Positions 7,144 to 53,182 of a stretch of DNA of 64,000 nucleotides are shown piece after piece. Below the pieces are notes generated by a model. It had not been told where the DNA came from, did no database searches, and saw nothing but the letters and a program-made list of their open reading frames with translations. The stretch is from positions 644,385 through 708,384 of the forward strand of contig JAKBKY010000001.1 in the NCBI GenBank assembly GCA_021832345.1. The letters run 5' to 3'. Source of the DNA: a bacterium (lineage in GTDB: Bacteria > Vulcanimicrobiota > Vulcanimicrobiia > Vulcanimicrobiales > Vulcanimicrobiaceae). Within the stretch, counting starts at the first letter, position 1. Each line of letters opens with the position of its first letter. The translations under genes and the position numbers were made by a program.

Positions 7144-8298
7144 ATGCGCAGACGAGCATTTCTCGTAACCGGAGCAGCGTTGGCGGCGGCGAGCGCCACG
7201 CCGTTGCGCGCGCAGCAGGTCTCACCCTTCGCGCGCCAACTCACGCTGGCGGTCATCGTGCCGCTCTCCGGGCCGCTGCAAGCCTACGGCCAACAGGTGG
7301 CGACCGGTGTGCAGGGAGCGGTGGATGAGGCCAATCGCTACTCGTTGCAGTCGACCTTCGTCTTCGGCATGCGCAGCTTCGACGACCAAAACTCTCCGGC
7401 GGTCGGAGCAACCAACGTGCAGGTGGCCGTCGCCGATCCCTCCATCGTCGCGATTCTCGGCAGCCTGCGCCCCGATGTCATTCTCTCCATGCTGCCGCAG
7501 TGCGCCAACACGGGCTTTGCGCTGCTGGTGCCGGCCACTTCGGCCGACGTGATCACCAAGCGTGGCTATCGCAACGTCTTTCGTTTGCCGACGAGCAATC
7601 GCATGGAGGGCCAACTCTTTGCGAGCAGCGTGCTGCCGAAGATCAAGCCGTCGTTTGCGCTGGCGGTCGCCCAGGATAGCGCCTACGGGCGCGAGGTTGC
7701 ACGCGGCTTTCTGGCTCAAGCCACCGTCGATCGCCACAACACGGAAGTGCTGCCCTATGCGCACGGCGATGACCCGGCGATCGTCGCGCAGGCGATCGTG
7801 CAGAAGAAGGTCGACTACGTCTTTCTCTGCGGCGTTCCTAGCGTGCTTGGGCCGCTCGCACCGGCGCTGCGCAAAGCCGGCTACGCCGGCGAGTTCGGCG
7901 CGGGAGACGGCTTCTTCGCGCAGCCGACGATCAAGCAGTTCGGTGTGGCGCTCGCCGGCGCAACCATCGCCGCGCAGCTCCCGCCGCTCGGGCGCGCGCC
8001 CAGCGATGCGATTGCGCTGGTGGATTACCAGCAAAATTTCGGTGCCATGACGGCGCTCTCGGCCTACGGCTATGCCGCCGCGCAGATCGCCATCTCCGCC
8101 GCCCAGCGCTCCGTCACGACCTCGCGCTTCACGCTGCTGCAGCAGCTTCAGATGATGGGCAGCTACAACACGATGGTCGGCCCGATGTCTTTCACCTTCA
8201 CGGGCGACCAGACCGATCCGAACATCTACCTGTACAAAATCTCCGGCAAGCGCTTTACGTTCGATCGCGCCGCTCACCCGACCAGCTTCGTGACCTAA
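7144..8298 (+). CDS. Branched-chain amino acid-type ABC transporter substrate-binding protein
   Basis: The 384 residues begin with MRRRAFLVTGAALAAASATP, a short signal peptide with an Arg-rich start that could be a Tat signal. The mature part has the periplasmic-binding fold of the LivK/Leu-Ile-Val group: LAVIVPLSGPLQAYGQQ at the N-terminus, VAILGSLRPDVILSMLPQCA and an ALAVAQDSAYGRE segment. The ligand is unknown; members bind amino acids, amides or aromatic acids. It is spaced 3 bases after ubiA and probably cotranscribed, but no permease genes are nearby. Part of its 3' end seems duplicated after the adjacent TA cassette (near 9166-9195). Confidence 0.82.
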   Translation: MRRRAFLVTGAALAAASATPLRAQQVSPFARQLTLAVIVPLSGPLQAYGQQVATGVQGAVDEANRYSLQSTFVFGMRSFDDQNSPAVGATNVQVAVADPSIVAILGSLRPDVILSMLPQCANTGFALLVPATSADVITKRGYRNVFRLPTSNRMEGQLFASSVLPKIKPSFALAVAQDSAYGREVARGFLAQATVDRHNTEVLPYAHGDDPAIVAQAIVQKKVDYVFLCGVPSVLGPLAPALRKAGYAGEFGAGDGFFAQPTIKQFGVALAGATIAAQLPPLGRAPSDAIALVDYQQNFGAMTALSAYGYAAAQIAISAAQRSVTTSRFTLLQQLQMMGSYNTMVGPMSFTFTGDQTDPNIYLYKISGKRFTFDRAAHPTSFVT

Positions 8299-8348
8299 GC
8301 TTGCATTCACCGAATGTGCGCGTGAACGTGCTACACGGTCACTTGGCG

Positions 8349-8577
8349 TCACGCGACGTGAATGATCTCCGCCGCCGATACGGGGTTAGGCACCGGCTGG
8401 CCGGTCTCGCGCAGTAACTCGATATGGCCCTCGATAGCTTCGCGGACATTCCGGGCCGCTTCAGCGCGCGTTTTTCCGCCGCTCGTGCAACCCGGCAAAT
8501 CGGGAACGTAAGCTCCCCAGGTGCCGTCTGCTGCCGGTTTCCCCTGGAGGTCGATCGGCGCTATCGTTTCGCTCGTG
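8349..8577 (-). pseudogene. HicB-like antitoxin fragment without start codon
   Basis: The minus frame reads GTWGAYVPDLPGCTSGGKTR followed by AEAARNVREAIEGHIELL and ends in SAAEIIHVA, the typical HicB antitoxin core. No ATG or GTG lies in frame before the core, and the usual first beta-strand is absent. It overlaps the end of the brnA-like gene in another frame. No hicA toxin is next to it. It is most likely a truncated remnant, unless it uses a rare start codon. HicB proteins bind and neutralise HicA mRNA-interferase toxins. Confidence 0.55.
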
Positions 8578-8845
8578 ACGAGGCCGCCGATGCAGCGAGG
8601 TAATGCTGATCCAGGGCCTGACGAAGAAGCGTTTTGACTACGGCCTGGCGGCTCACGTTCAGCTCCGCCGCTGCTCTATCCAACTCCTCAAGCATCGTCG
8701 AAGCAAAGTCCACGTTCACTCTCCGGATGGGCCCCATCATGCGGCCTTGGTTCGTGAAAAAACGCGATACATCTTCGCCGCGATCGGCGAGACGAGCAAT
8801 CTCATCGGCGGAAGGAGTCGGCCCCTTCTTACGAGTGGTCTTCAT
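8561..8845 (-). CDS. brnA: BrnA-like ribbon-helix-helix antitoxin
   Basis: The 94-residue protein starts at 8845 (MKTTRKKGPTPSADEIARLA); this start overlaps the toxin gene by 17 bases, the usual layout for brnTA. The C-terminal half, RRVNVDFASTMLEELDRAAA followed by ELNVSRQAVVKTLLRQAL, is a CopG/MetJ-type RHH DNA-binding domain. BrnA binds the BrnT toxin and represses the operon. A longer frame back to 9181 exists but overlaps brnT completely and is not credible. Confidence 0.75.
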   Translation of the reverse strand: MKTTRKKGPTPSADEIARLADRGEDVSRFFTNQGRMMGPIRRVNVDFASTMLEELDRAAAELNVSRQAVVKTLLRQALDQHYLAASAASSRAKR

Positions 8846-9107
8846 AGAGTGTTTGTTCCTGTTTGGTTGCCTTCCAAAGTGTGACGAGGTGATAGTATTC
8901 GCCGTCTTCGTCTTCACGTGTTTCGAAGATGACCGAGTAGAGACGCCCTTGCACCCAACCGATCGCACGGTATTGCTCGGGCAGATCGGAGCGCTGGTCC
9001 AGGTAGTACGGTTGCGTGAATACCTCCCGCGCCTCTTCGAAACCGATTGCCCTCTCGGAATTAGCACGAAGCTGCTTACTTTTTCGCTCGTCAAAACGGA
9101 AACGCAT
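8829..9107 (-). CDS. brnT: BrnT-family RNase toxin
   Basis: The 92-residue protein fits BrnT, a RelE-fold ribonuclease toxin: MRFRFDERKSKQL at the start, IGFEEAREVFTQPYY, RAIGWVQGRLYSVIFETRED, and a C-terminal strand. It precedes and overlaps brnA, as is standard. The ATG is immediately preceded by a palindrome containing TATAAC and TATATC, so the transcript is probably leaderless or nearly so. The toxin would cleave mRNA in the cytoplasm when BrnA is lost. Confidence 0.78.
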   Translation of the reverse strand: MRFRFDERKSKQLRANSERAIGFEEAREVFTQPYYLDQRSDLPEQYRAIGWVQGRLYSVIFETREDEDGEYYHLVTLWKATKQEQTLYEDHS

Positions 9108-9131
9108 AGTGATATAACAGTTATACCACTA
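9107..9131 (-). promoter_or_regulatory. Palindromic operator overlapping the brnT start
   Basis: TAGTGATATAAC (9107-9118) and GTTATACCACTA (9120-9131) are inverted repeats matching at 11 of 12 positions around one central base. The first base of the brnT ATG lies within the palindrome. TATAAC on the minus strand is a plausible -10 box. An RHH antitoxin bound here would block transcription, which fits BrnA autorepression. Confidence 0.65.
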
Positions 9132-9190
9132 TTAGGATCCATGCGCAATCCTGTCGGTAAACAGACGATCGCGCCGCCCACCTTCGTGAC

Positions 9191-10105
9191 CTAACGTCGC
9201 GGCGTTGCGGTGGGCGCGACCTTCGGTACTACGAAGAGCGCTGCCGGTAACGTGGATGGGTAGGTGAAGTGGTTGTAGTTCATGCGGATCGTATAGTTCT
9301 TAAAGGCGATTCCCAGCGCCCGAACTTCGATGTTGGCAAGCGACCCGCTCTCCATCCAGTACGCTCCCGATTGGCGAAAGTGGAGTTCGACGAATCCGGT
9401 CGCTCCGAACGGACCCATCCCGTTTGACGGCAAGGAGAAGCGCATCATGCAGAAGCGCATGGAGTGCAAATCGACGGTCACGTCCGTCAAAGGATGCGTC
9501 TGCGGATCGCGCCATGCGATAAGGTGGAGAGCGTGGCCGGGAGCGCCGTCGGGGCAGGACGCGGCGCCTCGGTCTTGCACGCGGTAGTATCCTGGGCCGA
9601 TGGATTTAACGATCGCGATGGTCCTGAGCGCAGCGCTGGGCGTCGGGGACGCGGGCGGGAGGCTCGTGCGCGCACTCGCCGGGGCGGGCTTGGGCGTTGG
9701 CGGTGCGCTTGCGTAGCCCTCTTGCATGAAGGCGTATGCCCCATTCCATGTGGGGCGAAGGAGGCCCCAGTGCGCTAGCGCGCGCTTGCCGTCGCGAAAG
9801 CGCAGGCTAGCTGCGCCGTCATGTGCGCGATAGGCGGCGTGTATGCGTTCGATGCTATTTGGACCTGGCCCAGCGGTAAGTTCGACGCGGCCTTTAGCGG
9901 GTGTCAGCTTCACCGAGCCGCCTTCGCCGCGAGCGATGATCGTGTAGGTGGCGTAGGCTGGTTGAGGCAGTGCGTCCATCGTTGCCACCGCTCGCACGTA
10001 GAATGCCGTCGCCGATGGCGGCGTCGCAGCCGGAAGTGGAGCAGCCGACGCGAAGGCGCAGAGCGAGAACATGAGCGCTGCGTATGCGGCGGCGGTGCGT
10101 TTCAT
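9191..10105 (-). CDS. Secreted hypothetical protein
   Basis: About 304 residues with the signal peptide MKRTAAAYAALMFSLCAFAS ending near SAAPLPA; a start 12 bases upstream (10117) is also possible. The mature part is rich in Ala and Pro, with a low-complexity PTPKPAPASARTSLPPASPT stretch in the middle. Two recognisable beta-rich portions surround it (FYVRAVATMDALPQPAYATY and DVTVDLHSMRFCMMRFSLPS). Similar exported proteins with many strands occur in acid-soil uncultured phyla, but no named domain is recognised. It lies between the brnTA cassette and a broken tolC-type gene. Confidence 0.65.
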   Translation of the reverse strand: MKRTAAAYAALMFSLCAFASAAPLPAATPPSATAFYVRAVATMDALPQPAYATYTIIARGEGGSVKLTPAKGRVELTAGPGPNSIERIHAAYRAHDGAASLRFRDGKRALAHWGLLRPTWNGAYAFMQEGYASAPPTPKPAPASARTSLPPASPTPSAALRTIAIVKSIGPGYYRVQDRGAASCPDGAPGHALHLIAWRDPQTHPLTDVTVDLHSMRFCMMRFSLPSNGMGPFGATGFVELHFRQSGAYWMESGSLANIEVRALGIAFKNYTIRMNYNHFTYPSTLPAALFVVPKVAPTATPRR

Positions 10106-10317: not shown

Positions 10318-10368
10318 AACAACACCTCGTACGCCGGGGCGGGAGAGAAAGTTTCGGAGCATGTAGAC

Positions 10369-10536: not shown

Positions 10537-10538
10537 GG

Positions 10539-19122: not shown

Positions 19123-19149
19123 GCCGTCCACAACCTTGGCCGAGATGGG
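19123..19149. repeat. 27-bp direct repeat, left of hipBA
   Basis: GCCGTCCACAACC then TTGGCCGAGATGGG is found here and again, identical, at 20894-20920. The two copies bracket the hipA-hipB module (1771 bases apart). Exact identity implies a recent duplication, either an insertion footprint or a recombination product. Confidence 0.8.
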
Positions 19150-20459: not shown

Positions 20460-20786
20460 CTAGCGCCGTTCGCGCGCGCGGCGTGCTCGCGACCGCGATT
20501 GCTGAGCGCGCAGGATGTCATCGAGCGAGCGTGCGTCCACCGCAGGGAAGAGCGATGCAAACTCGCGCTCAGCGCCCAGGGCAAGCGCAATGCGGAGCAC
20601 CGCCTCAAAGCCAACGCGGCCCGTACTCTCGAACCGTCGCAGCGTCGATAGCGTCACGCCCGCTGCATCAGCAAGATCAGCCTGGCGGCGGTTTTGGGAG
20701 AGGCGCAAAGCTCGGGCTCGGGCGCCGACATGCGCCGCAGCTTCCTTAGGAGCATAAAAGCTCACATCTGAACGTGTATTGGTCAT
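20460..20786 (-). CDS. hipB: HipB-like XRE-family antitoxin
   Basis: From the ATG at 20786 the protein has 108 residues. ARALRLSQNRRQADLADAAG followed by VTLSTLRRFESTGRVGFEAV is a Cro/CI-type helix-turn-helix. It should bind HipA and repress the operon. The ATG follows TGGTATGCTAACCATATAC closely; that stretch has a TGGT/ACCA dyad and a -10-like TATGCT, so transcription may start near the ATG. A start 15 bases upstream (20801) is also open. Confidence 0.8.
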   Translation of the reverse strand: MTNTRSDVSFYAPKEAAAHVGARARALRLSQNRRQADLADAAGVTLSTLRRFESTGRVGFEAVLRIALALGAEREFASLFPAVDARSLDDILRAQQSRSRARRARERR

Positions 20787-20893
20787 GTATATGGTTAGCA
20801 TACCACATTTAGGCGCCTATCAGTTGCCAGACCGAGGGACGGCTAGGTCACCTCAAAGTGACGGCGGCGATCGGCGCAGCAACGTGCACAGGT

Positions 20894-20920
20894 GCCGTCC
20901 ACAACCTTGGCCGAGATGGG
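20894..20920. repeat. 27-bp direct repeat, right of hipBA
   Basis: This is the second copy of the 27-bp repeat at 19123-19149; the flanking bases differ on both sides. In minus-strand translation both copies read PISAKVVDG, so the repeat may derive from the end of a former coding region. Confidence 0.8.
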
Positions 20921-22110: not shown

Positions 22111-22227
22111 CTATTCTATGGCGCCATGAACGAGGCCACGTTATGCTGGACGAGGCAACGCGCGTCGGAGCGCGCCAGGGGACGGCGGCGGGCGACCGAA
22201 GCATCGCGTCTAGGAGGACTTGAACGC

Positions 22228-23175
22228 GTGCGGATCATCGTCACCGGCGGGGCCGGTTTCATCGGGTCGCATATCGCCGATGCGTATGTGGCCGCCGGGC
22301 ATGAGGTGCTGGTCCTCGATTCGCTCTGGGAGCACGGCGGCGGGCGGCGCAGCAACGTGCCCGAGCGGGCCGGCTTCGTGCACATGGACGTGCGGGACGA
22401 GCAGGTGGAGCGGATCGTGCGCGAGTTTAAGCCCGAGGTGGTGAGCCACCATGCCGCGCAGCATTCGGTGGCGATCGGCTCGCGCGACCCGAAGTACGAT
22501 GCGGACGTCAACGTGCGCGGGCTGCTTAACGTGCTCGATGCCTGCGTGCGCGGCGGCGTGAAGAAGGTGATCTTCGCCTCGAGTGGGGCGACCTTCGGTA
22601 CGCCCGACCATCTGCCGATCGACGAGCGCACTCCGCAGCGCCCCGAATCCCCTTACGGCATCACGAAGATGGTCGCCGAGCACTACTTGCGCTTCTACCG
22701 CAGCGAGCACGGCCTGGATTTCACGGCGCTGCGGTACGGCAACGTCTACGGGCCGCGTCAAGACCCGAGCGGCGAGGCGGGGGTCGTCTCGATCTTCATC
22801 GGGCGGTTCATCAAGCATGAAGGCGTACGGATCGACTGGGACGGCGAGCAGACCCGCGACTACGTCTACGTGAAGGATGTTGCCGAAGCCAACCTGGCGG
22901 CGCTGGAGCGGGGTTCTGCCGGCTGTTACTGCATCGGCACTGGCGTACGCACGAGCGTGAACGCCATCTACCATGCGCTGGTGGAGATCTGCGGCTTTGA
23001 AGCGCCGATCACGGCCGGCCCCAAACGCGCAGGCGACGCCCGCGATGCGCAGTTCAACCCGGAGTTGGCCGCCCGGGAGTTGGACTGGACGCCCCAAACG
23101 AACCTGCTCGACGGCATGCGCCGGACGTATGCCTATTTTGCGGAGCAAAACCCGGCGACGGCGAAAAGCTCGTAG
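22228..23175 (+). CDS. NAD-dependent nucleotide-sugar epimerase, intact copy 1
   Basis: The GTG at 22228 follows AGGAGG by 10 bases and gives VRIIVTGGAGFIGSHIADAY, the Rossmann GxxGxxG of extended short-chain dehydrogenases. The product has 315 residues with an SSGATFG active-site region and the YGITK catalytic pair. It fits UDP-glucose 4-epimerase-like enzymes, interconverting sugars before polymer assembly; the substrate is not certain. From 22356 it is duplicated downstream: 610 bases recur almost without change at 23964, and the last about 167 bases recur at 25825. It is the only intact copy. Confidence 0.85.
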   Translation: MRIIVTGGAGFIGSHIADAYVAAGHEVLVLDSLWEHGGGRRSNVPERAGFVHMDVRDEQVERIVREFKPEVVSHHAAQHSVAIGSRDPKYDADVNVRGLLNVLDACVRGGVKKVIFASSGATFGTPDHLPIDERTPQRPESPYGITKMVAEHYLRFYRSEHGLDFTALRYGNVYGPRQDPSGEAGVVSIFIGRFIKHEGVRIDWDGEQTRDYVYVKDVAEANLAALERGSAGCYCIGTGVRTSVNAIYHALVEICGFEAPITAGPKRAGDARDAQFNPELAARELDWTPQTNLLDGMRRTYAYFAEQNPATAKSS

Positions 23176-23256: not shown

Positions 23257-23607
23257 TTAAGCGTCGTTGCCTCCAATAAGCGCCGATGCATGGTGAACAA
23301 TCCAATCCGCCAGTTCAGGAACGGTCATACCATTAGCAACGCGGTTTAAGAAAAGCTCTTTAGCCTCGTCGTCGGTAGCGGAAATCCAGGCAATGCGTTT
23401 ATTTCCATCAACAAATGGCTGATTTTCTGCGAGCGAGTGCATTAGCGCCGCTGCTTTTTCAGGAATGGTGGGATAGGCATCTACGCCAAACGCGGATTGC
23501 TGCGGTCTTCCTGCAGCAGAAGAGAGGCCATCGGCATTCCGCAGCCGCGGCTCTCCAATGACCTCTCGGTAAAACGCAATAATGTCCGCCTCGGTGAGGT
23601 ATTGCAA
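23257..23607 (-). CDS. Fic/Doc-family toxin with altered catalytic motif
   Basis: The 116-residue protein resembles Doc (death-on-curing) toxins, which phosphorylate elongation factor Tu through a Fic fold. The core motif reads NQPFVDGNKRIAW, where the family has HxFxDGNKRT; the catalytic His is Gln and the Thr is Ile. IPEKAAALMHSLAE before it is the typical preceding helix. It follows the RHH gene by 1 base, the expected antitoxin-toxin order. The change may make it inactive, or mark a variant group. It lies in the gap between epimerase copies 1 and 2. Confidence 0.7.
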   Translation of the reverse strand: MQYLTEADIIAFYREVIGEPRLRNADGLSSAAGRPQQSAFGVDAYPTIPEKAAALMHSLAENQPFVDGNKRIAWISATDDEAKELFLNRVANGMTVPELADWIVHHASALIGGNDA

Positions 23608-23608: not shown

Positions 23609-23827
23609 TTACGCGTCTGCCAGCGCTTTCAAGATAGAGGCGTCCTCTTTCGCGATAGCCCGAACCAGCGCCAGCATATCCGCGCGAGACACCGGATGGC
23701 GTTTGGAGTACTCACGGAGAGACTCCCCGACGATCTCGTTAACGGACCTCTTTTCGATCGTCGAGCGAAGCTTTAGCTGTTCTGCCGTCTCTTCGTCAAC
23801 CCGGATGTTCAACTGTTTTAGAGCCAT
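23609..23827 (-). CDS. Ribbon-helix-helix antitoxin paired with the Doc-like gene
   Basis: The start at 23827 (MALKQLNIRVDEETAEQLKL) follows AGGGAGAG and gives 72 residues. ALKQLNIRVDEETAEQLKLR then SVNEIVGESLREYSKRHP is an Arc/CopG-type RHH. The C-terminal tail (RADMLALVRAIAKEDASILK) likely binds the toxin. An upstream palindrome ATGGTACCAT at 23883-23892 is a possible operator. Confidence 0.7.
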   Translation of the reverse strand: MALKQLNIRVDEETAEQLKLRSTIEKRSVNEIVGESLREYSKRHPVSRADMLALVRAIAKEDASILKALADA

Positions 23828-23963
23828 AACGCTCTCCCTTACTGCCCCTTGCCGCGATCTCAATTTGCGGCGCTCTCATAGGATGGTACCATGCTGCTAT
23901 GCTATGTCAATAGGCCATGGTTCCACGCCTGACTTGCCTCGCAAATGCAGCACGGCGCCGCCG

Positions 23964-25824: not shown

Positions 25825-25988
25825 TCACGGCCGGCCCCAAACGCGCAGGCGACGCCCGCGATGCGCAGTTCAACCCGGAGTTGGCCGCCCGGGAGTTGGA
25901 CTGGACGCCCCAAACGAACCTGCTCGACGGCATGCGCCGGACGTATGCCTATTTTGCGGAGCAAAACCCGACGGCGAAGAGTTTGTAG
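25825..25988 (+). pseudogene. Epimerase copy 3, C-terminal fragment
   Basis: The 164 bases match the last 167 bases of copy 1 (from about 23009), with a 3-base deletion near the end. It covers the segment encoding AGDARDAQFNPELAARELDW and the following residues to the stop. It agrees with copy 1 where copy 2 differs (for example GCAGG, TTCAACCC and GAGTTGG). No start or domain core is present. Confidence 0.9.
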
Positions 25989-26099
25989 ACCTCTTGCCCT
26001 ATAGGGCAAGAGAACAAAGGAATGAGGGGCACCTCGCTCCGAAACCTCGCCTGCAATAATAAGAAGGCACGGCGATGCCTACGTCTCGGGAAGCAGTTT

Positions 26100-42902: not shown

Positions 42903-45197
42903 ATGCTGGTCGAAGAGATCTGTGCGCTGGCCCTGGCTGGCGTCTACGCCTCACTGGTAACGAGGACGGGCATTCCCGCACTGCGCCAAGATTGGGGCTG
43001 GCCGGCCTCTGCGGCCCAGTCGGATCATTTCCTCGTCTCCGCGTGGACTGGCTGGAGTACTGCTGGCCTTGGTGCCCCATCGGCATATCCTACCGGCTAC
43101 TTGCTCTCCATACCACTAACGGTGTGCCTGCGGGCCGTCGGGCCAGGCGCCGCGTTGTTCCTTTTCCTCCTTACCGTTGGTATTGTCGTGTCCTTTGGTG
43201 CGCTTTCAATCGTCCGACTTCGTACACATAGGCTGGCAACGTCTATGGGTCTTATGGCATTCGCACTATTCAACCCCTGGGTTTACACGAAAACCGTCGC
43301 TGGACACGCGATTATGGTGCTCGCCTATGGCCTAACGATGTTTCTAGTTTCAGCGTTATGCGCGGCGACCCTAAGCTGGCGAAAACTCGCGCTTATTCTT
43401 ATAGCGGCGTTTGCCCAGCTGCAATTCTTTGTAGTGGCATTAGCGATCACCATACTGCAAATTCGCAGAAGCGGCACCCTTAGGGCGCTTCTGGTTGCCG
43501 CGATTATAGCGCTATCGACCATTGTCGGCGTCCTCGCCAACTGGAACACGCTGAGGGCGGCACCATACACCTTGGCATGGCAGCAAAACGAATCAGTTTC
43601 ACCAGGGCGAGTGCTTTTGCTGATGGGCTACTTCGCGGGATACGCTAAACCGTTAGCGGGATGGGCCGAAGCCTCGTGCTACCTCATCATCGCCTGCGCA
43701 ATGCTCGGACTGGCCTCAGCTTGGTGCGGTGCCGCCAGCGATCGCCGCGTCTCGCTAGTGGTTCTTGCCGCGGTGATTACCGCGGCGACCGTTGCGACGG
43801 GAACGAAGGGCATTATCGCGCAGCCGTACGCCTACGTGGTGCAGCGCTATCCCGAAACAGCTCTTTTTAGGGAGCTCTACGACCTCCTCGGGTACGTTGC
43901 GATAGGATACGTCACACTCGCCTCATATGCCGGGCGAAAGCGCCTTCTTTCCGCCCTTGCATTGTGCGCCGGTACCGCCGCGCTTGGTGCATGGATCGCG
44001 TTCCCACCCACCCGCTTCTTTGTCCCCTCGGCGGCCCTTCCTGTGGCGCACCTGGTCGCCCCAGCAAACACAAGGTTCGCACTTTACCCAGCTTTCCAGC
44101 CACTGAAATTTGGAGGGCGAGGCTCAGGCATGGATCCAGACGCGCACTCGCGCCCCGGCAACGTGACGCCTCTGAACACATACCTTATCGAGTACCCTGC
44201 CGCAGTTGCCCTGACCGCGTACCTTCGCTATGGCGCGACCACGGGGCTGTCGGGGCTGAGTGTCTCAACGATCGTGACTCGTGCGTACCTTGCCAGCAAT
44301 TACGGCAGCCTGGCGGCACAGCTAGGCGGGGATTTCCCGCGCCCCGGGGCACGGGCGCCGGCTCGATTAAAGAGGATCGCGTACGTACCCGAGCTCTCGC
44401 TCCTTGGCACGCCTCAAGTCGCGGCAATCGCATCCACCCTGGGCGCCGGCAATGTGTTTTTTGGCGATGCAAGGCACTCAGGCGCCATATATACCTGGCG
44501 GCGCTTACCCCGTTTCTGGCCCGTCACAGCGCCAAATACGCACGTTAGCGTGCGGCATGGATGGGTCGCCGCGCCCTTTACATTTTTAGCACACTTAAAG
44601 GCCGCACAATGGCTTGGCGGCGCCGCGACATCCTCGTCCGATGCCGTCCTGCGCTTGCCTGCGTCACGAAGCTTGCTGGTCTATGTTGCAGGAGGATCGC
44701 TCCGCTATCGTGGCCGCCTTGTTTCTCGTCAGACAAGCGGCTACCGCTGGGTCCCGGTTCCACATATCCCCTTGGCCCTTCAATGCATCGGCTTCTGCGT
44801 TGTGGCGGGGCGAGCAAGTAGACTCCCCAGCATGCCAAACAATCCGCCCGCACATGCGTACCGGGCCGTTCCCTTTAAGCTTTTGCTTCCCTGGCTTGTT
44901 GTGGCGCGTGTACCTCCGCACGCGCGCGGTGCGCTTCGCTACAATGTTGCGTATAACCGCTGGTGGTTCGCCTTCCTGGCAGGTCGCAGATTGCAGCACT
45001 TGCGCCTTGACGAAACGGTTAACGGCTGGCTCGTTGGCGGAGCAAGCCGGAGCAAGCCATTGGTCGTCATTGAAATTGTTGCAGCGCTCCAGGCGCTGCT
45101 GGAACTCCTTGGCACACTGGCAGTCGCGTGGCTACTCTGGGCGTGCGTCTCCGCGCGAATCAGGACATTTCACCTTCCTACGCAACCACAAGATTGA
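42903..45197 (+). CDS. Large polytopic membrane protein of the polysaccharide locus
   Basis: The ATG at 42903 (MLVEEICALALAGVYASLVT) gives 764 residues; a TTG at 42798 would add 35. About ten hydrophobic helices fill the first 380 residues, then a long extracytoplasmic domain, then a last helix (ALLELLGTLAVAWLLWACVS). The overall plan resembles the GT-C-like protein at 35774. Its last codons (LPTQPQD) and stop lie within a decayed antisense leuS fragment, so the natural 3' end was probably replaced by recombination. Function is unknown; a polymer assembly or transfer role is a guess. Confidence 0.68.
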   Translation: MLVEEICALALAGVYASLVTRTGIPALRQDWGWPASAAQSDHFLVSAWTGWSTAGLGAPSAYPTGYLLSIPLTVCLRAVGPGAALFLFLLTVGIVVSFGALSIVRLRTHRLATSMGLMAFALFNPWVYTKTVAGHAIMVLAYGLTMFLVSALCAATLSWRKLALILIAAFAQLQFFVVALAITILQIRRSGTLRALLVAAIIALSTIVGVLANWNTLRAAPYTLAWQQNESVSPGRVLLLMGYFAGYAKPLAGWAEASCYLIIACAMLGLASAWCGAASDRRVSLVVLAAVITAATVATGTKGIIAQPYAYVVQRYPETALFRELYDLLGYVAIGYVTLASYAGRKRLLSALALCAGTAALGAWIAFPPTRFFVPSAALPVAHLVAPANTRFALYPAFQPLKFGGRGSGMDPDAHSRPGNVTPLNTYLIEYPAAVALTAYLRYGATTGLSGLSVSTIVTRAYLASNYGSLAAQLGGDFPRPGARAPARLKRIAYVPELSLLGTPQVAAIASTLGAGNVFFGDARHSGAIYTWRRLPRFWPVTAPNTHVSVRHGWVAAPFTFLAHLKAAQWLGGAATSSSDAVLRLPASRSLLVYVAGGSLRYRGRLVSRQTSGYRWVPVPHIPLALQCIGFCVVAGRASRLPSMPNNPPAHAYRAVPFKLLLPWLVVARVPPHARGALRYNVAYNRWWFAFLAGRRLQHLRLDETVNGWLVGGASRSKPLVVIEIVAALQALLELLGTLAVAWLLWACVSARIRTFHLPTQPQD

Positions 45198-45290
45198 GTA
45201 GCTGGTCGGCGACGTAGATGCGCTTGTGCAGGGTCTTGCGCGGCCAGCGCGTAGGCGGCCTCTTCGGTGATGCCGGGCGCGGCGCAGTTG
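45178..45290 (-). pseudogene. Decayed leuS 3'-end fragment
   Basis: On the minus strand the sequence reads AAPGITEEAAYALA, then (after a deletion that shifts the frame) KTLHKRIYVADQLLNLVVA and a stop. The intact LeuRS at 53182 ends KTLRKRIYVADRLLNLVVG, with AAPGITEEAAYALALGDP upstream. The fragment is similar but clearly not identical, so it is either old or came from a related genome. It marks the left edge of the 45-53 kb island. Confidence 0.85.
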
Positions 45291-45351
45291 CGTAGTAAGC
45301 GTCCGCTAGAGGCCGTCTTGACGGCGAACGGGCTATCGCGTTAAGGGGCGG

Positions 45352-45762
45352 CTAGGCCTGCGACGGAAGGTCGGGCGTCGTGTCGGTAGCGGTGAGCGGT
45401 GTGACGTGCGCCGCGTTCAGGTTCCAGGGCAGGAGATCGGCGATGTGGTTTATCGGATGGTCGGCGATGCGCGTGAGTACTTCACGCAGAAACGCTTCGG
45501 GATTGTGACCGTTGAGCTTGGCGGTGCCCAGCAAGCTGTAGATGGCTGCGGCTCGCTCGCCGCCGGCATCGCTGCCGGCGAAGAGAAAGTTCTTGCGCTT
45601 ATGGAAACCTTTCCATAAGCGCAATTGTAGACGATCCAATCTCCCCAATACGGTCCAATCCGGCCGAATGTGCCGACAATACTCAGAGAAGAGATGTGCC
45701 CAGTCATAACTCTCGGATTCCCCTGTGAAATTAACATGCAGCACATTCATTCCCTCCGGCAC
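45352..45762 (-). mobile_element. IS66-family transposase C-terminal remnant
   Basis: RKNFLFAGSDAGGERAAAIY, SLLGTAKLNGHNPEAFLREV and LTRIADHPINHIADLLPWN form the well-known C-terminus of IS66 TnpC transposases. The recognisable part is 45352 to about 45605; the first 50 residues of the frame (VNFTGESESYDWAHLFSEYC) are unrelated. The catalytic DDE domain is missing, so it is inactive. Confidence 0.75.
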
Positions 45763-48442: not shown

Positions 48443-49318
48443 ACTCACACCTCGGAGCCTATGTGGCCTTGCTCGGTTCACATTACGCCTATTCCCCAGA
48501 TCAGACAAGGGGTCGGTGACGCTATCTGCGGGCGAGCTTGGGAGCGTGCATCGCCCTGCTGTTCGCCCCAGGCCTGGTACAATGTGAACCACTTGCTGCC
48601 AGCTTGGCACGGCGGTTTCTCGCGCGCCCACGGACGGTGCGCGATACGATGGTCGCAACGATTCTGTGATCGCGCGGCGACCGTGATGGGCCGATGGTCC
48701 CACCAAGGCTACCCCCGGGCAGGAAAGGGACGGCGGTTTAGAACTGCCGCCAAGTACTGTGCAATGCGGCAACGACGCCTAACTGCGGCGCACGAGCGAC
48801 GGGTTGCAAAGCGATAGGCAAGGCATCACCGTAACAAAACGCCCGCCCGCGTGATCGATGTCGTTGTATCGTCGGACGACCTCTGCTGATTTTCACCCAT
48901 CCAGAGGTGCCCTTGCAGTTAGTTGCCATGTAACTGTCATGTCTATTGGCGAAAGAGTGCCGATGCGCGTACCGTTGAGGGCCTGGACATCCCTATCACC
49001 GATCTCCGCGACGTCGCACGCGTTATGGAGCTACGAATCAAGCGCCGCAATGAGACTGGTCCTGATCGCAGTCGACGCCTGGCGGGAGCTCCAAGAGATG
49101 TACCGCGTCACGCTCTCTTGGGACGGCTCACGGATCGTCGCAGCCTCGACGAGCGCGCCGCTCTTTTAGCTGGGCACGCCCAGGAATACGAGCGGAGCGC
49201 CTTCTTGCGCTACAGGCCGATGCTCTCGGCCACCTGAAGACGGATCTGCTCGACCTGCTCAAGCGTGATCTGCGATGCCGTCACGGTCCCGACCCGCTGT
49301 TCCGATGCAGTTTTGAAC
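48443..49318. other. Region without an intact gene, possibly decayed coding sequence
   Basis: Several short frames overlap here. Fragments such as LVLIAVDAWRELQEMYRVTL and LLALQADALGHLKTDLLDLL (around 49050-49260) look protein-like but lie in different frames, suggesting a decayed gene. No family could be named. Confidence 0.35.
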
Positions 49319-49512
49319 TACTCCCCGGCCTAAAGGCCGAGGATTCTTCCACGTATCGCTCATGCGACACGCTGAGTTTCCTGCTTCGACGACTCGCCCA
49401 ACGGCGAATCTCCACAGGCGATCCGGGCCGATCCAGCCCTTCGTAGGATGTTGATTGCGGCGTTCGTATCCGCGTTGGCCGCGTGCTCGCACACGACGCA
49501 TCGAAAGGCCTC
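49319..49512 (-). mobile_element. IS605-family tnpB 3' remnant with right-end hairpin
   Basis: The minus frame reads EAFRCVVCEHAANADTNAAI then NILRRAGSARIACGDSPL and GESSKQETQRVA, the C-terminal zinc finger (CVVC) and last catalytic Asp region (NADTNAA) of TnpB. Downstream is the hairpin CCTCGGCCTTTAGGCCGGGG. A stop is found just upstream of EAF, so the rest of tnpB is gone. The piece interrupts a TumE-like gene. Confidence 0.8.
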
Positions 49513-49692
49513 CTATGGTCCACATCGTTCCAAAAATCGGTGAGTAGCGATTCGATCGTCGTAAACCGATAACTCATTTGTCGCTTACCGACATGCCGAT
49601 GATCGCCTTTTCCGGTCTCGTTGTCGTAACGCACGACACATCGACCATTCACCACGAACGCCAGCCGGTATTTGAATCGGTGCGTGTCGCCC
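49513..49692 (-). pseudogene. TumE-like toxin remnant, interrupted
   Basis: The minus frame gives GDTHRFKYRLAFVVNGRCVV, RYDNETGKGDHRHVGKRQMS and YRFTTIESLLTDFWNDVD, matching TumE-family (DUF6516) toxins. The start is lacking and the C-terminus runs into TnpB sequence near 49512. The first part (49641-49692) is repeated at 53131-53182 with one mismatch. Confidence 0.6.
49641..49692. repeat. 52-bp direct repeat (left), from tumE-like sequence
   Basis: This stretch (starting TCGACCATTCACCACGAACG) recurs at 53131-53182 with one mismatch (T for C). The two copies are 3.49 kb apart and enclose the TA run of 49.7-53.1 kb. Confidence 0.85.
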
Positions 49693-49753: not shown

Positions 49754-50014
49754 CTAGCGCCGGCGGTACACGTCCTTGCGGGGGGCGACCTTGAGCACTA
49801 GCACGCGCAACACGTCGTCGTTCACCTCATAAATGACGCGGTAGTCCCCAGCGCGTAAGCGCAGTTCCTTGGTGCTGCCGACGAGTTGCTTGGCGCCAAC
49901 CGGACGCGGGTTTTCATCGAGTCGTTCCACCCTGGCGATAATGCGGCGCCGCATCGCAGGCGAGAGCGCTTCTAACGCTTTTATCGCCGGGCGCGTAAAG
50001 TCAACGCTATAAAT
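49754..50014 (-). CDS. RelE/ParE-family toxin with probable ATT start
   Basis: The family fold begins YSVDFTRPAIKALEALSPAM, which lies upstream of the first ATG (49954). In that frame the only start near the antitoxin stop is ATT at 50014, overlapping it, giving 86 residues. The core PVGAKQLVGSTKELRLRAGD and YRVIYEVNDDVLRVLVLKVA are standard for RelE ribosome-dependent mRNA endonucleases. If translation instead begins at 49954 the first helix is lost. It is the toxin of the Phd-RelE pair. Confidence 0.78.
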   Translation of the reverse strand: MYSVDFTRPAIKALEALSPAMRRRIIARVERLDENPRPVGAKQLVGSTKELRLRAGDYRVIYEVNDDVLRVLVLKVAPRKDVYRRR

Positions 50015-50273
50015 CGAAACGGGCCTTCACGTCTTCGAGCGATACCGTCCCATGCTTGCGCGCATCCTCGCGCGCTGCGGCGGCGTCCGCTACGTCTTGC
50101 GCGTCTTCGAGCCGGTGCAGCGCCTCCAGCGCCTCCAGCGATACCAGCGCTGCAATTGGCTTGCCCCGTCGCGTCAGCACAAGTTCTTCATCGCCGTAAG
50201 CGACGCGGTTGACGATTTCGCTGCCGTGCTCGCGTAATGCGGTCGTCGGGATGGTAGTATAGTCTAGCGCCAT
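50007..50273 (-). CDS. Phd/YefM-family antitoxin
   Basis: The 88 residues start MALDYTTIPTTALREHGSEI and contain VNRVAYGDEELVLTRRGKPI and AALVSLEALEALHRLE, the Phd/YefM DNA-binding fold; the tail (AREDARKHGTVSLEDVKARF) is the toxin-binding extension. It precedes relE with an 8-base overlap. TACAAT upstream on the minus strand is a likely -10. Its ATG is only 10 bases from the divergent mazF start. Confidence 0.85.
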   Translation of the reverse strand: MALDYTTIPTTALREHGSEIVNRVAYGDEELVLTRRGKPIAALVSLEALEALHRLEDAQDVADAAAAREDARKHGTVSLEDVKARFDL

Positions 50274-50283
50274 AATGCCTTAA

Positions 50284-50652
50284 TTGTACGTTTCGGACGC
50301 CACAACGTCAAGGGGGGGGCAGATCTGGCACATGGCGTTGGACTCGACCGTCGGAAGCGAGCAGGCGAAAACGCGTCCGTGCGTCATCGTTCAACGAGAC
50401 GCGGCAAACGCCATCTCGCCCATTACGATCGTCTGCCCACTGAGCGACGCCCAAGGTTCAACAGGCTCGATCATCGCCGTTAAAGTTACGAAAGGGGAAG
50501 GCGGTCTCAGGAAAGACAGCCTGGTGTTGTGCAATCAAGTCCGAACCGTTTCGCACCTGCGGCTTCAACGATTCAACGGGTGCTTAGAGAGCGATACCAT
50601 GCAAAAGATTAGCCGCGGTCTGAGGGAAATCTTGGACCTACGAAGCATCTGA
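50284..50652 (+). CDS. MazF/PemK-like toxin without visible antitoxin; G8 tract in frame
   Basis: From the TTG at 50284 the 122 residues contain GGQIWHMALDSTVGSEQAKT and RPCVIVQRDAANAISPITIV, a PemK/MazF mRNA interferase. The N-terminus reads TSRGGQIW instead of the usual RGEIW because of a run of eight Gs at 50312-50319. The run could slip and switch the frame. No mazE lies upstream: the neighbour on that side is the divergent phd. The IS605 remnant follows. Confidence 0.75.
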   Translation: MYVSDATTSRGGQIWHMALDSTVGSEQAKTRPCVIVQRDAANAISPITIVCPLSDAQGSTGSIIAVKVTKGEGGLRKDSLVLCNQVRTVSHLRLQRFNGCLESDTMQKISRGLREILDLRSI

Positions 50653-50669
50653 GGCTGGTATTGCTGCCA

Positions 50670-50745
50670 CCGGTATAGGGCGAGTTTTCATCCGCATGAG
50701 CCACGAGAAAGAATCTCCGGTCTTCAGGCCGGAGAGTGTCAAGTC
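50670..50745 (+). mobile_element. IS605-type right-end hairpin remnant
   Basis: GAATCTCCGGTCTTCAGGCC then GGAGAGTGTCAA is a right-end hairpin of TnpB-carrying elements; upstream CATGAGCCACGAGAAAG resembles the tnpB tail seen at 49350-49370. It ends within the last codons of the PIN gene, so insertion may have modified its 3' end. No transposase is left. Confidence 0.55.
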
Positions 50746-51140
50746 TCGAGAAGCGTGAACGTCGGTAATCGTTCGGCAGCGCGTCTGTCGAAGGTGATCG
50801 TTGTCGTGCAGGTCTTCTCACGGTTGATCTCACCAAGAAGCGCATCTGCGAGATCAGCGCCTTGCCGGTAGGCTGCAAGTGCGGCCCGAAGGGCGTCGTG
50901 GTTCTCGAACCGTAGCTCCGCCGTGTGCAAAAGTCGTTCCATCGCATCAGTAATTTGCTCGTGCGTGAACTTGTACGCGCGCTCCAAGACCCACGCGATC
51001 TCCACGGCGACGATGCGATTGACCCACCCGGGACGCTCGTTCGAGCAGTTCGCGCGTAGAAACGCGAGCGCTGCTTGTTGCTGGCGTGCGTCGTCTCCAG
51101 TAAGGATTCGCACGATGACGTTGGTGTCGAGTCCGATCAC
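50739..51140 (-). CDS. VapC-like PIN-domain toxin
   Basis: The 133-residue protein has the PIN acidic set: MIGLDTNVIVRILTGDD (Asp 5), VAVEIAWVLERAYKF (Glu), GADLADALLGEI (Asp) and TITFDRRAAERL. VapC toxins cleave tRNA or rRNA sites. Its GTG/ATG region overlaps the antitoxin stop by 4 bases. The last residues (TFTLLET) are read through the edge of an IS605 remnant. Confidence 0.85.
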   Translation of the reverse strand: MIGLDTNVIVRILTGDDARQQQAALAFLRANCSNERPGWVNRIVAVEIAWVLERAYKFTHEQITDAMERLLHTAELRFENHDALRAALAAYRQGADLADALLGEINREKTCTTTITFDRRAAERLPTFTLLET

Positions 51141-51379
51141 AGCGCGTGCGCGGCGGTCGCTTCAAGGATCGCTTCGTTCATCTCTTCGATGGACACGACG
51201 CGCGCCGGCTTCGGGAGAATCGAGGTGATGTCGTCCAGGTGTAGGGTCTTGGGGATCAGCAGGATGCGCTGGCCTTCGAGGGTCACCTCGATCAGGTCTC
51301 CAGGCTTCAGCCCGAGCCGATCCCGGATATCCTTGGGCAGCGTCATCTGGCCTTTTGTGGTGATGGTTGTAATCGTCAT
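51137..51379 (-). CDS. AbrB/VapB-family antitoxin
   Basis: The 80 residues open with MTITTITTKGQMTLPKDIRD and RLGLKPGDLIEVTLEGQRIL, a SpoVT-AbrB swapped-hairpin DNA-binding domain. The C-terminus (ISIEEMNEAILEATAAHAL-like) would bind the PIN toxin. It overlaps the toxin gene by 4 bases, so both are in one operon. Confidence 0.85.
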   Translation of the reverse strand: MTITTITTKGQMTLPKDIRDRLGLKPGDLIEVTLEGQRILLIPKTLHLDDITSILPKPARVVSIEEMNEAILEATAAHAL

Positions 51380-51581
51380 TCCCTACTACGATTCCTTACT
51401 TTTATTTTTCTCCTTACTCTACGACAAGGACCGATCTCTGTCAATGCCGCAGTTCGCACCGCGTGGCCCACCGTACGATCGCGGAGCCCCCGCTCCCGGC
51501 GCCTTCGGAGTCATTGACGAATGCGAACGTTCACGATGCGGGCCGCGTGCTGCCTCAGGTAACATTGTTCCCCGGTTGGTT

Positions 51582-51681
51582 GTTGTCGTCGACCACTTCG
51601 GCGACGTCAAGGATATCCCGCAGGCTGCGCCCGAGAGGATCGAGCTTCCAAACGAAGACCATCGCGGGGAAGCCTTGACAC
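51582..51681 (-). mobile_element. Serine recombinase (resolvase) fragment
   Basis: The minus frame reads AMVFVWKLDPLGRSLRDILD then VAEVVDDN, matching the conserved VWKLDRLGRSxRDLLxL segment of serine resolvases. The catalytic serine region and DNA-binding domain are not present. It lies in the gap between the VapBC and RHH-PIN operons. Confidence 0.65.
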
Positions 51682-51698
51682 AGGTCTGAGCTCCGGTT

Positions 51699-51726
51699 AC
51701 TGTGAAAACATGAAAAATATCACAGT
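51699..51726 (+). promoter_or_regulatory. Inverted repeat over the RHH-PIN operon start
   Basis: ACTGTGA (51699-51705) and TCACAGT (51720-51726) are perfect inverted repeats 14 bases apart, with the ATG at 51710 between them. This is a suitable operator for the RHH antitoxin. Confidence 0.5.
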
Positions 51727-51946
51727 TTCACTAGACGAAGAGACGTACCGGCGCGCCCGGATGCGGGCAGCGGAGCGCGATACTTCCGTCTCGGCGTTGG
51801 TGCGACAATTTTTGATTGAGATGGCATCGGGTGAAAGTGAAAGCGAACGGCTGAAGCGCGACGAGGCACGGCTGCGGGACGTCATCCAGTCCTTCCGGGC
51901 GGCGGACCGGCTTGAGCGGGATGAGCTTCACGAGCGCGGCCGGTGA
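51710..51946 (+). CDS. Ribbon-helix-helix antitoxin of the PIN pair
   Basis: The 78 residues begin MKNITVSLDEETYRRARMRA and contain ERDTSVSALVRQFLIEMASG, a standard RHH fold, followed by an acidic/basic tail (DEARLRDVIQSFRAADRLER) for toxin binding. The start of the PIN gene overlaps its stop by 4 bases (GTGA). Confidence 0.82.
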   Translation: MKNITVSLDEETYRRARMRAAERDTSVSALVRQFLIEMASGESESERLKRDEARLRDVIQSFRAADRLERDELHERGR

Positions 51947-52359
51947 GCGCGCGACGTTTCATCGACACCAACATCCTGCTCTATTCTATCAGCCGCGCGC
52001 CGGATGAGAGCAGCAAGCGCACCCGCGCCATCGACCTGCTGGAGGGAGACGATTGCGGGCTTTCCGTGCAGGTGCTTCAGGAATTTTATGTGCAGGCGAC
52101 GCGTGCCACACGCGCTGATGCCCTCCCCCATGAGGTGGCGGCGGGTCTGATCAGCGCATGGCGTCGCTTTCCAGTGCAGGACAACAATCTCGCCGTCCTG
52201 GAGGGCGCGCTGGAAATCAAGGCAGCGCACGGTTTTTCTTTTTGGGACAGCGCGATCGTCGCCGCCGCCCGCGCGCTGGGCTGCCGCGAACTTCTCTCCG
52301 AAGACATGAGCCATGGCCGCGAGATCGAGGGCATCGTCATTCTCAATCCGTTTCGCTGA
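51943..52359 (+). CDS. VapC-like PIN-domain toxin
   Basis: The 138-residue product has RRFIDTNILLYSIS, VQVLQEFYVQATR, FSFWDSAIVAAARALG and ELLSEDMSHGREIEGI, giving all PIN acidic positions and the C-terminal strand. The GTG start is coupled to the RHH gene. It is a ribonuclease toxin whose target is not predictable. Confidence 0.87.
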   Translation: MSARRFIDTNILLYSISRAPDESSKRTRAIDLLEGDDCGLSVQVLQEFYVQATRATRADALPHEVAAGLISAWRRFPVQDNNLAVLEGALEIKAAHGFSFWDSAIVAAARALGCRELLSEDMSHGREIEGIVILNPFR

Positions 52360-52491
52360 TCCAGGAACGGTTGGTTCTGGCGAGCGGGGAGACCCTCACG
52401 ATCGGCTTGCATGAGCGAGGCGCCCCGTGCAACGTGTCTTCCTGCATGTGTCGCACTTGCTCGTAACACGGCTATGTGATACGCTAGACGC

Positions 52492-52734
52492 ATGTCGGAT
52501 ACGCTCAGCATTCGCCTGGAATCGCGCGACCGCAAGACGCTTGAACGGGCTGCCCGAAAGCGGGGGACGGGGCTCAGTTCCTTCGTGCGGGATCTCGCCG
52601 AAAGCGAGGCGCGTCGCTTGCGCCAGGCAGAGATTCGCGCCGAGGGCGAACGCATCGTGGCGCACCTCGCCGCACATCCCGTAGCCCGAGAAGAACTCGA
52701 AACCTACGGCACCCCGATCGGGACGTTACCGTGA
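52492..52734 (+). CDS. Ribbon-helix-helix antitoxin of the second MazF pair
   Basis: The 80 residues begin MSDTLSIRLESRDRKTLERA and continue ARKRGTGLSSFVRDLAESEA, an RHH/CopG domain with a helical tail (RAEGERIVAHLAAHPVAREE). It overlaps the MazF-like gene by 4 bases. It should repress and neutralise the toxin. Confidence 0.8.
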   Translation: MSDTLSIRLESRDRKTLERAARKRGTGLSSFVRDLAESEARRLRQAEIRAEGERIVAHLAAHPVAREELETYGTPIGTLP

Positions 52735-53093
52735 GCCGCATCGCGGCCGGAACAATTGTGCTCGTCGATTGGCGTAGCGGTGCTGTTCCACGCGAGCCGA
52801 CGAAGGTTAGGCCCGCGATCGTCGTTGAGGATCACGAACTCTTCCCGGAAGACTATCCAAACACGCTCGTTGTACCACTCACTCGCGACGAAGGGCTAGC
52901 CCACGCGGCATTCGCGCAGAGGATCGATCCGACGCCGGAAAACGGCGCGAACGAGACCTCGTGGGCATTAGCGCATCATGTAACAAGCGTTTCACTGCAA
53001 CGCGTTCAGCCGACTCCATCACGCGTCACGTCAAAACAGCTGGCTGGAATCCGCGCACACGCGGCGCTCGCCCTCGGCGTAAGCGATTCTTAA
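52731..53093 (+). CDS. MazF/PemK-like toxin
   Basis: The 120-residue protein has RIAAGTIVLVDWRSGAVPRE, PTKVRPAIVVEDHELFPEDY, PNTLVVPLTRDEGLAHAAFA and SWALAHHVTSVSLQRVQ, with a PemK/MazF fold similar to plasmid-type growth inhibitors. The GTG start overlaps the antitoxin stop. It is followed after 37 bases by the right-hand 52-bp repeat and the leuS 3' end. Confidence 0.8.
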   Translation: MSRIAAGTIVLVDWRSGAVPREPTKVRPAIVVEDHELFPEDYPNTLVVPLTRDEGLAHAAFAQRIDPTPENGANETSWALAHHVTSVSLQRVQPTPSRVTSKQLAGIRAHAALALGVSDS

Positions 53094-53130
53094 GTCCCCG
53101 GCGCCCGAACCCGTTGCCTGTCTCAGATGA

Positions 53131-53182
53131 TCGACCATTCACCACGAACGCCAGCCGGTACTTGAATCGGTGCGTGTCGCCC
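53131..53182. repeat. 52-bp direct repeat (right), adjoining leuS
   Basis: This is the second copy of the tumE-like repeat at 49641-49692, one base different. Its last base touches the leuS stop codon. No further part of tumE continues here. Confidence 0.85.

What the first reader, a model, noticed from the sequence alone, without database searches (positions are those of the whole stretch)
8271..53182. TA cassettes repeatedly sit between duplicated ends of neighbouring genes
Several TA or TA-like cassettes are bracketed by direct copies of flanking DNA: hipBA by identical 27-bp repeats (19123, 20894); RHH-Doc and the HEPN-like pair by copies of the epimerase; the TA run at 49.7-53.1 kb by 52-bp repeats; the whole 45-53 kb island by leuS 3' ends; and, weakly, brnTA by similar ends of the binding-protein gene. 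The repeats are seen. That one mechanism (duplicative capture, circular-intermediate integration or recombination between repeats) made them all is inference. It may be a general route by which this lineage gains TA modules.
Basis: partly seen in the sequence, partly recalled or inferred. Interest (0 to 1): 0.75.

Follow-up and report, generated by a model that had tools for sequence, protein, structure and literature searches.

The report
Gene-end scars flank toxin-antitoxin inserts
In this bacterium several toxin-antitoxin cassettes sit between an intact housekeeping gene and a leftover copy of that gene's end, which looks like scars of insertions stacked by recombination; the same layout turns up around two bare toxin-antitoxin cassettes in other bacteria, a clue to the unsolved question of how such cassettes enter chromosomes.

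Summary
The repeats are real. Two cassettes follow an epimerase gene, each with a 5'-truncated copy of that gene's 3' end behind it; an 8-kb TA island separates leuS from a displaced leuS 3' end; a TA run lies between 53-bp copies of a tumE piece; hipBA lies between the genome's only two copies of a 27-mer; brnTA is the weakest case. In 13 of 63 measured relatives epimerase and leuS stops lie within 12 bp or overlap, so the intervening DNA is probably inserted. The divergent epimerase and leuS copies are mosaic or mostly synonymous: they look like other functional alleles, not decay. Best reading: one-sided, homology-anchored insertions stacked at a variable locus. It is not the usual state of TA loci here (0 of 30 sampled elsewhere exceed the null) and not TA-specific (non-TA cargo in relatives). 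But bare higBA behind comEC (another genus) and vapBC behind leuS (Acidobacteriota) show the same layout. Closest known: 'insertion with long target duplication' of restriction-modification systems, and stacked immunity arrays in Vibrio. No same-genus genome is held, so strain variation was not tested; mis-assembly is unlikely but not excluded.

The parts
7144..8298 (+). periplasmic binding protein gene (SBP), intact
   Evidence: PF13458 E 3.5e-30; convergent with an ABC permease gene in 24 of 29 family loci
8352..8558 (-). HicB-like antitoxin frame
   Evidence: PF15919 E 2.6e-12
8606..8695 (-). RHH stretch, BrnA-like by position (sub-threshold)
   Evidence: RHH_1 20.4 bits, cut-off 20.5, residues 163-192 of ORF 8561-9181
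8829..9107 (-). BrnT-like toxin (below cut-off)
   Evidence: PF04365 E 1.4e-7, 32.2 bits, cut-off 34.5
9166..9194 (+). displaced 3' end of the SBP gene; its stop overlaps the stop of ORF 9191-10117
   Evidence: 28/29 with one 8-nt gap; 1 of 2000 shuffles as good
19123..19149 (+). 27-bp direct repeat, left of hipBA
   Evidence: 27/27; only two copies in the genome
19155..20444 (-). hipA
   Evidence: PF07804 E 1.3e-44
20460..20801 (-). hipB
   Evidence: PF01381 E 4.7e-7
20894..20920 (+). 27-bp direct repeat, right of hipBA
   Evidence: 27/27
22126..23175 (+). epimerase, intact copy A (for most relatives the homology starts near 22225, so the true start may be there)
   Evidence: PF01370 E 1.7e-57; spacer comparison
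23257..23607 (-). Doc/Fic toxin
   Evidence: PF02661 E 3.3e-16
23609..23863 (-). RHH antitoxin (weak)
   Evidence: RHH_1 E 0.021, below cut-off
23953..24742 (+). epimerase copy B: 5'-truncated, 41-nt deletion, divergent 3' end, own stop at 24740-24742
24748..25038 (-). small partner ORF of the HEPN gene, no family found
25044..25514 (-). HEPN-domain protein
   Evidence: PF05168 E 1e-5
25825..25988 (+). epimerase copy C: displaced 3' end next to the glycan cluster
45178..45292 (-). displaced leuS 3' end with a 32-nt deletion
   Evidence: 89% and 92% blocks; 9 synonymous to 3 nonsynonymous
45352..45762 (-). IS66 transposase C-terminal fragment
   Evidence: PF13817 E 2e-16
49281..49691 (-). 5'-truncated tumE toxin frame
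   Evidence: PF20126 E 3.6e-12, profile 20-80 of 81
49640..49692 (-). 53-bp repeat (tumE piece), far copy
   Evidence: 52/53
49754..51379 (.). TA run, first part: ParE 49754-49954 (-), Phd/YefM 50007-50273 (-), PemK/MazF 50284-50652 (+), PIN 50739-51140 (-), MazE-like 51137-51379 (-)
51558..51698 (-). possible serine resolvase remnant (47 aa)
   Evidence: PF00239 E 0.0029, below cut-off
51710..53093 (+). TA run, second part: RHH-like 51710-51946 / PIN 51943-52359, TacA-like 52492-52734 / PemK-MazF 52731-53093
53130..53182 (-). 53-bp repeat (tumE piece), near copy, abuts the leuS stop
   Evidence: 52/53
53182..55776 (-). leuS, intact
   Evidence: PF13603 E 3.2e-65

Best explanation
The cassettes were added one after another at a locus (comEC - epimerase - leuS, and similarly the SBP end) where relatives carry different cargo behind the same conserved genes. 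In each event, incoming DNA from a related strain carried the 3' end of the conserved gene followed by a cassette. One side recombined by homology inside the gene, so the gene stayed whole as a hybrid; the other side joined without homology inside the resident gene's 3' part. The resident gene's 5'-truncated end was pushed to the far side as a scar. Shown: the repeats, gaps without insert in some relatives, the mosaic pattern, the excess of synonymous divergence. Inferred: the donors, the one-sided crossover, entry by natural transformation. The near-exact 27-bp and 53-bp repeats may instead be target duplications.
For: Sites without insert: 13 of 63 measured family genomes have epimerase and leuS stops within 12 bp or overlapping, among them the three with the best epimerase scores. 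Layout: intact gene, cargo, 5'-truncated 3' end that ends at the stop codon, for epimerase twice, leuS and SBP. Mosaic: A and B identical over 585 nt, differences confined to the last part. The divergent ends changed as under purifying selection: epimerase A/B 8 synonymous to 3 nonsynonymous (P 0.0023), leuS 9 to 3 (P 0.0018). Similar layouts elsewhere in the family: comEC 3' part in L261/G087 (481 nt, 81%, alignment ends 117 nt before the stop), leuS 3' end in L108/G010, higBA behind comEC in L103/G011. A comEC-family gene is present. This kind of recombination is described in naturally competent species (PMC2884548, passages; PMC3240628, start of abstract in a listing).
Against: No same-genus genome is held, so no donor allele and no strain-level empty site was seen. 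The 27-mer (27/27), the 53-mer (52/53) and L103 (32/32) show almost no divergence, as a target duplication would. Copies A and C differ by only 2 synonymous and 2 nonsynonymous changes (P 0.3), so that pair gives no sign of import, and two donors of different kinds are needed. Junction microhomology could not be judged. No close match of the TA cargo was found in the 111 family and order loci searched, only a partial Doc similarity (39%) in one genome (L107/L022).
Confidence: 0.57

Rival explanations
1. Insertion with long target duplication, as proposed for restriction-modification systems: a cassette inserts at a staggered break and 27 to 800 bp of target are copied on both sides; later recombination or drift changed some copies.
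For: Exact or near-exact repeats at hipBA (27/27), the TA run (52/53) and L103 higBA (32/32); L070 vapBC 95 nt at 93.7%. Described for RM systems with long, variable duplications in the order of 100 bp (PMC3874152, passages; PMC1643837, passages).
Against: Epimerase B is mosaic, and epimerase A/B and leuS differences are mostly synonymous, not what identical copies that decay would give. No recombinase of the cassettes is known.
Confidence: 0.28
2. Remains of integrase-dependent islands that regenerate the 3' end of their target gene (attL/attR).
For: Intact gene, island, displaced 3' end is the geometry of such islands (recalled); remnants of TnpB, IS66 and possibly a resolvase lie in the leuS island.
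Against: No intact integrase among the island ORFs scanned; the Doc/RHH, HEPN and hipBA inserts leave little room for one; several different target sequences with repeat lengths from 27 to 832 nt.
Confidence: 0.05
3. Assembly of strain variants in a metagenome-derived genome produced false partial copies.
For: The genome has 11 contigs and may come from a metagenome; no reads were available.
Against: Copies differ by in-gene deletions and carry different downstream genes; contamination estimate 0.08%; similar layouts occur in other assemblies and in another phylum.
Confidence: 0.05
4. Ordinary tandem duplication of gene ends, unrelated in time to the cassettes, which landed later in the spacer.
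For: Partial duplications do arise in bacteria, also during transformation (PMC3784515, passages).
Against: Cassettes fill most of the space between the copies in each of five places; no anchored 3'-end copy was found in the own-genome sample of 373 kb.
Confidence: 0.05

Closest known systems
Insertion with long target duplication of restriction-modification systems (Nobusato et al. 2000, Furuta et al. 2010; not read, seen only as cited in PMC3874152, PMC1643837, PMC3031569)
   Same: Bare addiction-type gene pair, long and variable direct repeats of host DNA on both sides, insertion polymorphism between related genomes.
   Different: Here the cargo is TA, the repeats often end at stop codons of conserved genes, and some copies look like divergent alleles rather than duplicates.
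Stacked immunity-gene arrays of Vibrio cholerae T6SS clusters, ascribed to homology-facilitated illegitimate recombination (PMC5361080, passages)
   Same: One conserved upstream anchor, non-homologous far end, old 3' ends shifted downstream of the new module, repeated events give arrays.
   Different: Here the anchor gene stays intact and the cargo are whole TA cassettes and other genes, not swapped effector ends.
E. coli TA islets such as ccd between folA and apaH
   Same: Bare TA pair in a convergent intergenic site between core genes.
   Different: Comparison of K-12 (L264) with strain CX21 (L265) shows no copy of folA or apaH ends.

Membership tests
Insertion with long target duplication | Direct repeats of target DNA on both sides of the insert | tested here: met
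   (brnTA only with a gap)
Insertion with long target duplication | Related genome has one copy at an empty site | tested here: inconclusive
   13 of 63 family genomes have no insert between epimerase and leuS; SBP end single in 27 family loci; but only at genus distance or more
Insertion with long target duplication | The two copies are duplicates of one target sequence | tested here: inconclusive
   Near-identical for 27-mer and 53-mer; epimerase A/B 3' ends and leuS ends are divergent, mostly synonymous
Homology-facilitated illegitimate recombination | One end homologous, other end without homology | tested here: inconclusive
   Homology of the copies stops at the stop codon on one side and inside the gene on the other; no donor available
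Homology-facilitated illegitimate recombination | Mosaic of donor and resident sequence in the anchor gene | tested here: met
   Epimerase A/B: identity over 585 nt, then divergence; not shown for leuS, SBP, hipBA
Homology-facilitated illegitimate recombination | Organism takes up DNA | not testable with these tools
   Only a comEC-family gene seen
Integrase-dependent genomic island | Integrase gene in the island | tested here: not met
   No integrase among the ORFs scanned; one sub-threshold 47-aa resolvase piece
Type II TA systems | Toxin family profile plus adjacent small antitoxin ORF | tested here: met
   HipA, Doc, ParE/Phd, PIN, PemK above cut-off; BrnT and several RHH partners below cut-off; activity not tested

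The most novel reading that the evidence does not exclude
Bare TA cassettes of unrelated families are commonly inserted right behind the stop codon of core genes together with a copy of that gene's 3' end, in several phyla: a transposase-free route of TA entry that keeps the host gene intact and leaves a datable scar, the TA counterpart of the RM target-duplication insertions.
Probability: 0.25. Interest if true: 0.85.

Novelty: new variant of a known kind. Interest (0 to 1): 0.6.

Why it matters
[quoted passage not shown] Gene-end scars give a sequence signature that can be searched for in any genome, that names the empty site, and that can separate a target duplication (identical copies) from import with a donor gene end (mosaic, synonymous divergence). 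Both kinds of signature appear in one 64-kb window, and the layout recurs around single TA cassettes in another genus and another phylum.

Tried and rejected
TA-specific, lineage-wide route: rejected as stated, because 0 of 8 other PIN/Phd loci (best 26.5 bits, null 95% 30.1) and 0 of 22 testable ParE loci of 25 fetched (best 30.1, null 95% 33.7; some flanks were shorter than 1500 nt) are bracketed, and because of 42 gap ORFs of relatives scanned (138 were listed) only two matched a TA family by Pfam, one HepT-like and one HicA. Repeats as common dispersed sequence: rejected; the 47-nt repeat in L149 does look dispersed (by eye) and was dropped. Extra epimerase or leuS pieces in relatives by tblastn: none in 63, but this test missed L108, which the DNA comparison found (1 of 49 gaps at 44 bits or more). 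In a family null of 500 random brackets four exceed 44 bits, two of them in L103 and L113. L113/L160 entered the 3'-end scan only through an antisense ORF; they are copies of the comEC 5' end and are not counted as 3' ends. The window's leuS fragment is outside the 6-kb reach of that scan, and L261 was missed because its alignment ends 117 nt before the stop. E. coli ccd at folA-apaH: no copied ends. SBP ends in 27 family loci: no copy (best 27.4 bits). No convincing match of the 27-mer in relatives' comEC-epimerase spacers. PADLOC and NCBIfam named none of the unknown partners they were given. The figure '2 of 4 inserts are TA' is small, was noticed after looking, and two of the four loci come from the block under study.
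Full report
WHAT THE WINDOW IS. The window is contig C3, 644385-708384, of a 2.34-Mb genome in 11 contigs (98.04% complete, 0.08% contamination). A leuS search ranks first an unnamed bacterium MAG (69%) and second a Candidatus Eremiobacterota MAG (65%), so the phylum is probably Eremiobacterota. The family search covered 99 genomes, this one included, and none of the others is of the same genus.

THE REPEATS. Intact epimerase 22126-23175 is followed by a Doc/RHH pair, then by copy B (23953-24742), then by the HEPN pair, then by copy C (25825-25988), then by the glycan cluster. leuS (53182-55776, minus strand) is followed by an 8-kb island and a displaced leuS 3' end (45178-45292). The 53-bp repeat is a piece of a truncated tumE frame, not a leuS end; its near copy abuts the leuS stop. 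hipBA lies between two 27-mers that are the only copies in the genome, even with 3 mismatches. The tumE piece also occurs only at its two places. For brnTA, a gapped comparison gives 28 of 29 bases to the SBP end, ending at the stop codon, with 1 of 2000 shuffles as good; ungapped it is only at the 95% level of the null.

CHANCE. Best direct repeat across random brackets in 240 kb of the same genome (480 draws): 95% 30.1 bits, 99% 38.3, three at 57.2. Window cassettes: Doc/RHH 1281, HEPN 242, TA run 92.4, hipBA 50.0, brnTA 30.1. Direct repeats of 44 bits or more with 150 nt to 10 kb between the copies: 2 in 240 kb of control and 1 in 133 kb around eight other TA loci; in the window 12 pairs, of which 7 belong to the cassettes and 5 to paralogous ABC genes and a tandem array.

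SITES WITHOUT INSERT. In family loci long enough to show it the order is comEC (-), epimerase (+), leuS (-). Of 63 family genomes in which I placed both stops (genomes with the genes on separate contigs, and a few others, were not fetched), 13 have them within 12 bp or overlapping, 1 has 179 bp, and 49 carry 460 to 13166 bp; the window has about 30 kb. The three genomes with the best epimerase scores (G089, G087, G088) each have a 4-bp overlap of stops. SBP is convergent with an ABC permease gene in 24 of 29 family loci; three of the other five show no ABC match although sequence is there. brnTA and ORF 9191-10117 are therefore probably both insertions.

ORIGIN OF THE COPIES. Copies A and B are identical over 585 nt (22356-22940); then come one substitution, a 41-nt deletion and a divergent end. 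In that end A/B differ by 8 synonymous and 3 nonsynonymous changes (27% synonymous expected without selection, P 0.0023); leuS and its fragment differ by 9 and 3 (30% expected, P 0.0018); B/C by 8 and 5 (P 0.012); A/C by 2 and 2 (P 0.3, no signal). A duplication that then decays would not be expected to give the first two. The simplest account is that B's end, and the leuS fragment or its partner, come from other functional alleles. This fits a crossover in the gene with a foreign end, as in homology-facilitated illegitimate recombination (PMC2884548, passages; PMC3240628, start of abstract in a listing) and as proposed for stacked Vibrio immunity arrays (PMC5361080, passages). The hipBA and tumE repeats are near-identical and fit a target duplication better.

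OUTSIDE THE WINDOW. Comparing gene ends with the neighbouring gap: 1 of 49 family gaps (L108, G010) holds a leuS 3' end, 70-84 nt at 83-84%, behind an unknown 152-aa ORF. comEC parts lie downstream of comEC in L261/L127 (G087, 481 nt, 81%, alignment ending 117 nt before the stop), L120 (G018, 151 nt, 87%, 6.3 kb away, not reaching the stop), L103 (G011) and weakly L114 (46 bits, 74%, not reaching the stop), out of 52 loci, some genomes twice and some from the neighbouring family. A comEC 5' copy lies beside the epimerase in L113/L160 (G014; acetyltransferase and glyoxalase genes between), and L172/L118 (G007) has direct repeats in the comEC-epimerase spacer. In L103 the cargo is a bare higBA pair (HigB E 2.6e-14, HTH partner E 2.6e-7) between 32-bp exact copies of the comEC end. 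Of 76 leuS loci of other organisms (78 fetched, 2 with too little sequence downstream) one, L070 (Bryobacterales MAG), has a 95-nt copy (93.7%) ending at the stop codon; the 708 bp between hold a PIN toxin (E 1.1e-5) and an RHH-like antitoxin frame (the antitoxin is named by eye, not by a search). A scan of 2206 ORF ends in 2.97 Mb, overlapping loci included, gave 13 rows; outside the window, with cargo of 500 bp or more and a true 3' end, four remain: vapBC (L070), higBA (L103), a transposase-like ORF in Sporomusa (L028, named by eye) and the unknown ORF of L108. The other rows have cargo under 300 bp, are the antisense case L113/L160, or lie in the window.

LIMITS OF GENERALITY. 0 of 8 PIN/Phd loci elsewhere in this genome and 0 of 22 testable ParE loci, 18 in relatives and 4 here, are bracketed above the 95% level of the null. 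The E. coli ccd islet has no copied gene ends (one occupied strain compared). Most sampled TA loci therefore show no such scar, either because they came another way or because scars decay.

LITERATURE. 'Insertion with long target duplication' is known for RM systems (original papers not read). A review says TA integration mechanisms are unelucidated. No paper of the held library has both 'toxin-antitoxin' and 'homology-facilitated illegitimate recombination'. In the listings shown (20 of 56 papers; 3 of 3; 15 of 126), read as titles and abstract starts, I saw no report of TA cassettes between gene-end copies. That is not proof of absence in print.

VERDICT. Observation confirmed; single mechanism and lineage-wide TA route not shown; most likely stacked, homology-anchored insertions at a variable locus, with TA cassettes as frequent cargo in this genome.

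Noticed in passing
20861-20887 and 22334-22360: 25 of 27 identical bases: a piece of the epimerase 5' part lies upstream of the nucleotidyltransferase-like pair 20960-22082, ending close to where copy B begins; may be a further scar.
   Followed up: partly
1351-1456: Rfam match to Helicobacter pylori sRNA family HPnc0580 above its gathering score, unexpected in this phylum.
   Followed up: no
56455-57201: ORF built of a 54-bp tandem repeat, with weak coiled-coil-type matches.
   Followed up: no
whole genome G000: 6 of the 27 ParE-family hits of 99 family genomes lie in this genome: it is rich in ParE.
   Followed up: partly
49363-49512: C-terminal TnpB-like remnant overlapping the tumE region on the same strand (PF07282, E 8.6e-5, below cut-off).
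   Followed up: partly
25991-26012 and 45593-45624: Perfect and near-perfect palindromes (22 and 32 nt), the first directly behind copy C, possibly a terminator.
   Followed up: no
L124 and L135: G020 and G081 have inserts of 11.5 kb with many related ORFs in the same epimerase-leuS gap.
   Followed up: no
L028:3206-5900: Sporomusa aminotransferase-like gene with a 163-nt copy of its 3' end behind a transposase-like ORF (genes named by eye).
   Followed up: partly
46033-47925 and 48083-48772: 630-aa and 229-aa ORFs in the leuS island without a match above cut-off in Pfam, PADLOC or NCBIfam.
   Followed up: partly
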